From Phycisphaerales bacterium (GTDB taxonomy: Bacteria; Planctomycetota; Phycisphaerae; Phycisphaerales; UBA1924): a stretch of DNA of 64,000 bases. Both the position numbers and the translations under genes were made by a program. The stretch spans positions 1-64,000 of the forward strand of contig JADLCX010000027.1 in the NCBI GenBank assembly GCA_020846975.1, written 5' to 3'. Below, one piece after another: positions 3,680 through 3,889 of the stretch (position 1 is its first letter; every line of letters begins with the position of its first letter). Under the pieces are notes generated by a model that had not been told where the DNA came from, did not search any database, and saw nothing but the letters and a program-made list of their open reading frames with translations.

Positions 3680-3889
3680 TTCGATTCAGTGATTGAATCG
3701 GGCGATGCAATCGTTGAATCGACCGGTGCAACGACTCAACCGCCCGATTCAACTCTTTAACCGCGCGATTCAGTTGTTGAACCGACCGGTGCAACCCTTG
3801 ACCCGCGCGGTGCAACGCTTGAACCGGTCGATTCAGCCGTTGCACCGGCCGGAATTGTTCTTGCACCGGTCGGAGCAACCGTCTATCCG
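3680..3889. repeat. Tandem array of about ten degenerate 21-bp partly palindromic units
   Basis: Read directly: ttcgattcagtgattgaatcg / ggcgatgcaatcgttgaatcg / accggtgcaacgactcaaccg / cccgattcaactctttaaccg / cgcgattcagttgttgaaccg / accggtgcaacccttgacccg / cgcggtgcaacgcttgaaccg / gtcgattcagccgttgcaccg / gccggaattgttcttgcaccg / gtcggagcaaccgtctatccg; no indels. Confidence 0.9.

What the first reader, a model, noticed from the sequence alone, without database searches (positions are those of the whole stretch)
3680..3889. Array of ten degenerate, partly palindromic 21-bp units between mlaD-like gene and a zinc-ribbon ORF
Seen: ten consecutive units of exactly 21 nt with no indels. Each is built around half-sites TTGAATCG / TTGAACCG / TTGCACCG and their reverse complements CGATTCA(A) / CGGTGCA(A), so palindromes such as TTGCACCGGTCGGTGCAA recur. 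Because the unit is nearly self-complementary, both strands translate into similar heptads (LNRPVQR on plus, LNRPVQA on minus), which argues that selection or replication acts on DNA or RNA rather than protein. Known: 21 bp is close to two B-DNA turns. Inference: a phased array of binding sites, a structured RNA, or a novel tandem-palindrome element. Unlike CRISPR, there are no spacers.
Basis: partly seen in the sequence, partly recalled or inferred. Interest (0 to 1): 0.82.

Follow-up and report, generated by a model that had tools for sequence, protein, structure and literature searches.

The report
Intergenic 21-bp phased palindrome array
Between two genes lies a non-coding row of about ten near-palindromic DNA units repeated every 21 bases (two turns of the helix); it is one of about ten such rows per million bases in this genome, mostly with different sequences, and an unrelated bacterium has many more, which points to a little-described kind of phased DNA site.

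Summary
The array is real: nine full 21-bp units at 3693-3881 plus partial units at each end; lag-21 identity is 0.68 against 0.32±0.03 in shuffles. It does not look like a gene: codon score is below zero in all six frames and codon usage is foreign. Conserved columns form a dyad, TTGAAYCG-NN-CGRTKCAA, with a 3-nt variable linker. A paralogous array on another contig shares an identical 36-bp leader and differs by one unit. It is not a singleton. About 1 Mb of the same genome holds ten period-21 arrays, nine intergenic, most with unrelated units; periods 16 and 24 give one each. 1.15 Mb of family and order relatives has none except two 7-mer repeats. Bhargavaea cecembensis, another phylum, has about 33 period-21 and 6 period-20 arrays in 400 kb; one core, with a free 1-25 nt gap, always recurs at exactly 21 bp (13 of 13). 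Best reading: helically phased protein-binding arrays that grow by whole units. No binder was identified; binding is inferred. A sequence-blind 21-bp duplication process and a hairpin element remain possible.

The parts
3693..3881 (.). nine full 21-bp units, each TTGAAYCG-NN-CGRTKCAA (18 bp) plus a 3-nt linker
3680..3692 (.). 5' partial unit (right half-site CGATTCAG and linker)
3882..3899 (.). degenerate 3' partial unit
3615..3650 (+). 36-nt leader, identical beside the paralogous array on contig C72 (52.0 kb)
44087..44240 (.). second, sequence-unrelated 21-bp array of the same class in the window
2182..3513 (+). upstream gene, MlaD domain
4011..4511 (+). downstream zinc-ribbon-like ORF (CxxC pairs by eye; no Pfam match, weak codon signal)

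Best explanation
The array is a non-coding, helically phased row of recognition sites. Each 21-bp unit holds an 18-bp two-fold symmetric site (TTGAAYCG-NN-CGRTKCAA) and a 3-bp linker, so successive sites lie on the same face of the DNA two turns apart. Shown: the period, the dyad-shaped conservation, the lack of a coding signal, whole-unit copy-number change, and recurrence of the same 21-bp architecture with other units at other intergenic places of this genome and in Bhargavaea. Inferred: that a dimeric, probably helix-turn-helix, protein binds each site, that binding along the row is cooperative, and that selection keeps the phase while units are gained and lost by slippage or recombination.
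For: Period far above shuffles. Column conservation is uneven (p<0.001 for this array) and symmetric: C7 G8/C11 G12 and T2/A17 nearly fixed, centre and linker free; dyad axis score 0.68 against a 99% null of 0.58. Genome-wide, 19 of 21 sites (up to 2 mismatches) sit in three arrays; the reversed control gives 1. The paralogous array differs by one whole unit. Ten period-21 arrays in 1.016 Mb; of the other periods 14-45 only 16 and 24 give one each. In Bhargavaea 13 of 13 core pairs are exactly 21 bp apart although any gap of 1-25 was allowed, and the linkers differ. Analogue: three ACCGNNCGGTTCAG sites at exactly 21 bp directly upstream of a TetR-family gene in Streptomyces.
Against: No binding protein was identified, and the motif does not occur as single sites near a regulator, as an ordinary regulon would show. 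Flanking genes share no theme (mlaD, nuoD, rsmH, sppA, panB, recQ, aconitase). Most other arrays of this genome are not clearly palindromic. Gene context varies, including one convergent gap. The mlaD flanks of 11 relatives have no such array.
Confidence: 0.45

Rival explanations
1. A neutral minisatellite made by a sequence-blind duplication process whose step is two helical turns (21 bp); arrays have no function and decay.
For: Most arrays of the genome have unrelated units and sit beside unrelated genes; the motif exists only inside arrays; copy number differs by one unit; relatives lack the arrays.
Against: Units have diverged to 60-70% identity without a single indel; conserved and free columns are not random; in Bhargavaea cores stay constant while linkers differ; neutral minisatellites usually show many periods, here nearly one.
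Confidence: 0.28
2. A hairpin or REP/BIME-like palindromic element acting as RNA or cruciform (termination, mRNA stability, supercoiling).
For: Strong predicted folding on both strands (z about -7 for this array; below -3 for most of the nine); intergenic; the genome has Y1 transposases and a likely REP.
Against: By inspection half-sites of a unit do not co-vary; other arrays of the class (L026, L032, most of Bhargavaea) do not fold well; no GTAG/CGTC-tagged unit; no Y1 gene beside the array; fixed 21-bp phase is not a REP feature.
Confidence: 0.15
3. Remnant or functional gene for a small heptad-repeat (coiled-coil) protein reading LNRPVQR.
For: Open plus-strand frame 3693-3899; synonymous codon differences enriched against the paralog (p=0.0035 or 0.096 depending on the unit taken as missing).
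Against: Codon score ≤0 in six frames and foreign codon usage; stops just upstream and in related arrays; no protein homologs with the paralog's frame; period-20 arrays in Bhargavaea; other frames open in other arrays.
Confidence: 0.07

Closest known systems
Tandem TetR-family operators (Streptomyces filamentosus, locus L135)
   Same: Palindromic ACCGNNCGGT core repeated at exactly 21 bp, three times, just upstream of a TetR gene
   Different: Here nine to ten sites, no regulator gene beside them, hardly any single sites elsewhere, three loci sharing the motif
Plasmid and phage iterons (general knowledge)
   Same: Direct repeats of about two helical turns bound by a protein along one face
   Different: Scattered chromosomal intergenic loci, no replication initiator beside the array, different unit at most loci
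REP/BIME elements with RAYT transposases (PMC3733652)
   Same: Intergenic short palindromes in clusters
   Different: No GTAG or CGTC tag on the unit, fixed 21-bp phase, no Y1 transposase gene beside the array; the genome's likely REP is another sequence
Prokaryotic satellites and periodic repeats (PMC6749651, PMC6344855)
   Same: Short tandem arrays, some families confined to one species
   Different: Those surveys describe mostly 6-8 bp derived units or coding multiples of three; a non-coding class fixed at 21 bp is not described in the parts read
CRISPR and TIGR arrays
   Same: Regular repeats with variable pieces
   Different: Unit far too short, linkers of 3-9 nt, no Nop-domain protein in the genome

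Membership tests
Heptad-repeat protein gene | Codon usage and coding signal of the host genome | tested here: not met
   per-codon score below 0 in all six frames, foreign codon choice; only weak synonymous enrichment
REP/BIME element | GTAG or CGTC tag at one end of a 20-40 bp palindrome | tested here: not met
   unit consensus carries neither tag; tag definition from PMC3733652
REP/BIME element | Association with a Y1 (RAYT) transposase | tested here: not met
   Y1 genes lie on other contigs; the motif does not occur beside them
Tandem TetR-type operator | Dyad-symmetric site repeated on one helix face | tested here: met
Tandem TetR-type operator | A regulator that binds the site, usually encoded next to it | tested here: inconclusive
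   no regulator among the Pfam-scanned flanking genes; binding cannot be tested with these tools
Iteron | Adjacent replication initiator gene | tested here: not met
   flanking genes are mlaD and two ORFs without Pfam match
TIGR array | Tas protein with a Nop domain in the genome | tested here: not met
   PF01798 absent, controls ring; the assembly is 95.8% complete
Two-turn (21-bp) intergenic array class, as described here | Exact period with hardly any neighbouring period, intergenic, several loci per genome | tested here: met

The most novel reading that the evidence does not exclude
Unrelated bacteria carry a so far unnamed class of intergenic arrays locked to two helical turns, each genome with its own quickly replaced recognition cores at many loci, implying a shared kind of system that reads (or writes) DNA in 21-bp steps.
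Probability: 0.3. Interest if true: 0.85.

Novelty: new variant of a known kind. Interest (0 to 1): 0.62.

Why it matters
The published survey of prokaryotic satellites that I could read treats periods that are multiples of three as probably coding. Here a period of 21 is non-coding and is nearly the only period in excess in this genome, with only 20 beside it in Bhargavaea, which points to helical phase rather than codons. If the arrays bind proteins they would be unusual multi-site operators or chromosome-organising sites; if they are neutral they would expose a duplication process with a step of two helical turns. Either can be tested directly in a cultured strain such as Bhargavaea cecembensis.

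Tried and rejected
Protein search with the paralog's LNRPVQ frame: no homologs. Rfam: only miRNA look-alikes below the gathering score, mostly on the neighbouring hairpin. Intrinsic curvature: A/T content shows no 10-11 bp periodicity. Half-site covariation inside units, expected of hairpins: none seen by inspection of the units. DNA search of 60 relatives: no match. A pattern search in Bhargavaea with the wrong gap length (20 instead of 21) was my error and is uninformative. Literature searches found no description of a 21-bp intergenic class. A recurrence count of exact 11-mers was not discriminating for the relatives because of their 7-mer repeats.

Full report
OBSERVATION. The window is contig C27 of a 4.2-Mb, 102-contig genome. 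At 3693-3881 there are nine full units of exactly 21 nt; a right half-site (3682-3689) precedes and a degenerate partial unit follows. Identity at lag 21/42/63 is 0.635/0.613/0.687 and falls to 0.27-0.30 at lags 20 and 22. The best lag-21 score of the gap is 0.68 against 0.32±0.03, maximum 0.42, in 2000 shuffles. The array is therefore real. One quoted palindrome (TTGCACCGGTCGGTGCAA) is not an exact string of the sequence.

NOT A GENE. A codon model from GC3-rich long frames of this genome scores the array below zero in all six frames, against +0.43 per codon for the neighbouring mlaD. The open frame relies on CAA, TTG, ATT and AAT, which make up 13, 7, 5 and 6% of their codon families here. 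Stops occur in the same frame just upstream and in related arrays. One result goes the other way: between this array and its paralog, synonymous codon differences are enriched in the LNRPVQ frame (p=0.0035 or 0.096 depending on which unit is taken as missing). The free columns of the dyad coincide partly with third positions, which can explain this, while the fourfold third position of the NCG codon never varies in the nine units. No homologous protein was found with the paralog's frame.

ANATOMY. Columns 7-8 and 11-12 (CG...CG) and column 2 are nearly fixed, while the two central and the last linker columns are free. The unevenness exceeds a uniform-mutation model for this array (no simulation of 2000) and its paralog (p=0.001), not clearly for the third array (p=0.075). 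The pattern is two-fold symmetric; the best dyad axis scores 0.68 against a 99% null of 0.58. Allowing two mismatches, the whole genome has 21 such sites, 19 of them in three arrays (here; C72:42.8 kb; C72:52.1 kb); the reversed control gives one. The C72:52.1-kb copy shares a 36-nt leader without a difference and has one more unit. So the leader is better kept than the array, and arrays change by whole units. The end of this array is related, in reverse complement, to an array on contig C61.

A CLASS IN THIS GENOME. A period scan of 1.016 Mb of the genome finds ten period-21 arrays. Among the other periods from 14 to 45 only 16 and 24 appear, once each. Nine are intergenic; in one case a start chosen by my own gene caller ran into the array, while the Peptidase_S49 gene itself begins beyond it. 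The tenth is an in-frame repeat inside what reads as a valyl-tRNA synthetase gene (inspection of L033:10748). The units are mostly unrelated in sequence, and one array lies in this same window at 44087-44240. The neighbours are ordinary genes with no common theme. A sample of 1.15 Mb from family and order relatives shows only two period-21 hits, both built of 7-mers, and the mlaD flanks of 11 relatives have no array. Palindromes are significant only in the four related arrays, not in the others, so the property shared by the class is the 21-bp period.

ANOTHER PHYLUM. A pattern search of the GTDB species genomes led to Bhargavaea cecembensis. In 400 kb it has 33 arrays of period 21 and 6 of period 20 at the stricter cut-off (35 and 6 at the looser one), and hardly any of other periods: five of 40, which is twice 20, and one of 25. 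Gene calls place all but two outside genes. Cores of 12-15 nt are constant and linkers differ. With any gap from 1 to 25 nt allowed, the core GAGTGACGCAAGTT recurs at exactly 21 bp in 13 of 13 cases, and in none of 120 family members. Period-20 arrays speak against codons as the cause of the period. Several other hits (for example L108, L113, L123, L138) lie in long open frames and look like coding repeats; they were set aside. That the Bhargavaea arrays and this one are one phenomenon is an inference from shared architecture, not from homology.

HOW IT MOST LIKELY WORKS. Shown: fixed two-turn phase, dyad conservation, no coding signal, whole-unit turnover, several loci. Inferred: a dimeric DNA-binding protein occupies each 18-bp site, and equal helical phase lets neighbours touch. 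An analogue is three ACCGNNCGGTTCAG sites at exactly 21 bp directly upstream of a TetR-family gene in Streptomyces filamentosus. Against it: no regulator is known, hardly any single sites exist elsewhere, and neighbours share no theme. Rivals are a sequence-blind 21-bp duplication process, a hairpin element, and a small coiled-coil gene, in that order.

KNOWN SYSTEMS. REP/BIME: tag absent, no Y1 transposase gene beside it, and the genome's likely REP is another sequence. TIGR: no Nop-domain protein. Iterons: no initiator gene beside it. Prokaryotic satellite and periodicity surveys (PMC6749651, PMC6344855) mention heptamer, hexamer and coding multiples of three, and I found no 21-bp non-coding class in the parts read. 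Most subscription papers are not in the library, so absence of a description is not proof.

LIMITS.

Noticed in passing
window 3904-3982: Hairpin with CTCCGCGTCTCCGCGCCTCCGCGTGAG arms just 3' of the array; short copies of the same sequence occur on C58, C68 and C32 and beside two other arrays.
   Followed up: partly
window 44087-44240: Second degenerate 21-bp array with an unrelated unit in the divergent gap between nuoD and a Na+/H+ exchanger gene.
   Followed up: partly
L033:10748 (contig C72): In-frame 21/42-bp repeat insert rich in CCAGATGCCGCATCTGG palindromes inside what reads as a valyl-tRNA synthetase gene.
   Followed up: no
L022:4798-5500 (contig C58) and L013:14330-14600: GCGTTAGCCGGGGGCGTGAGCCCCCGG hairpins on both sides of a Y1 transposase gene and beside the paralogous array: a likely REP/RAYT pair.
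   Followed up: partly
L171-L190 (Bhargavaea cecembensis): 33 period-21 and 6 period-20 arrays in 400 kb with many core families, several sharing GAGTG; more often in convergent gaps (8 against 31 such gaps) than in divergent ones (3 against 51).
   Followed up: partly
L135:5810-5865 (Streptomyces filamentosus): Three ACCGNNCGGTTCAG sites at exactly 21 bp upstream of a TetR-family gene.
   Followed up: yes
window 4866-4905: Long C-rich tract inside the open frame 4645-5379, which has no Pfam match.
   Followed up: no
L196:756 (relative G074): Long perfect heptamer array (GGGCGAA)n, of the 7-mer kind reported as most abundant in prokaryotic intergenic regions (PMC6344855).
   Followed up: no
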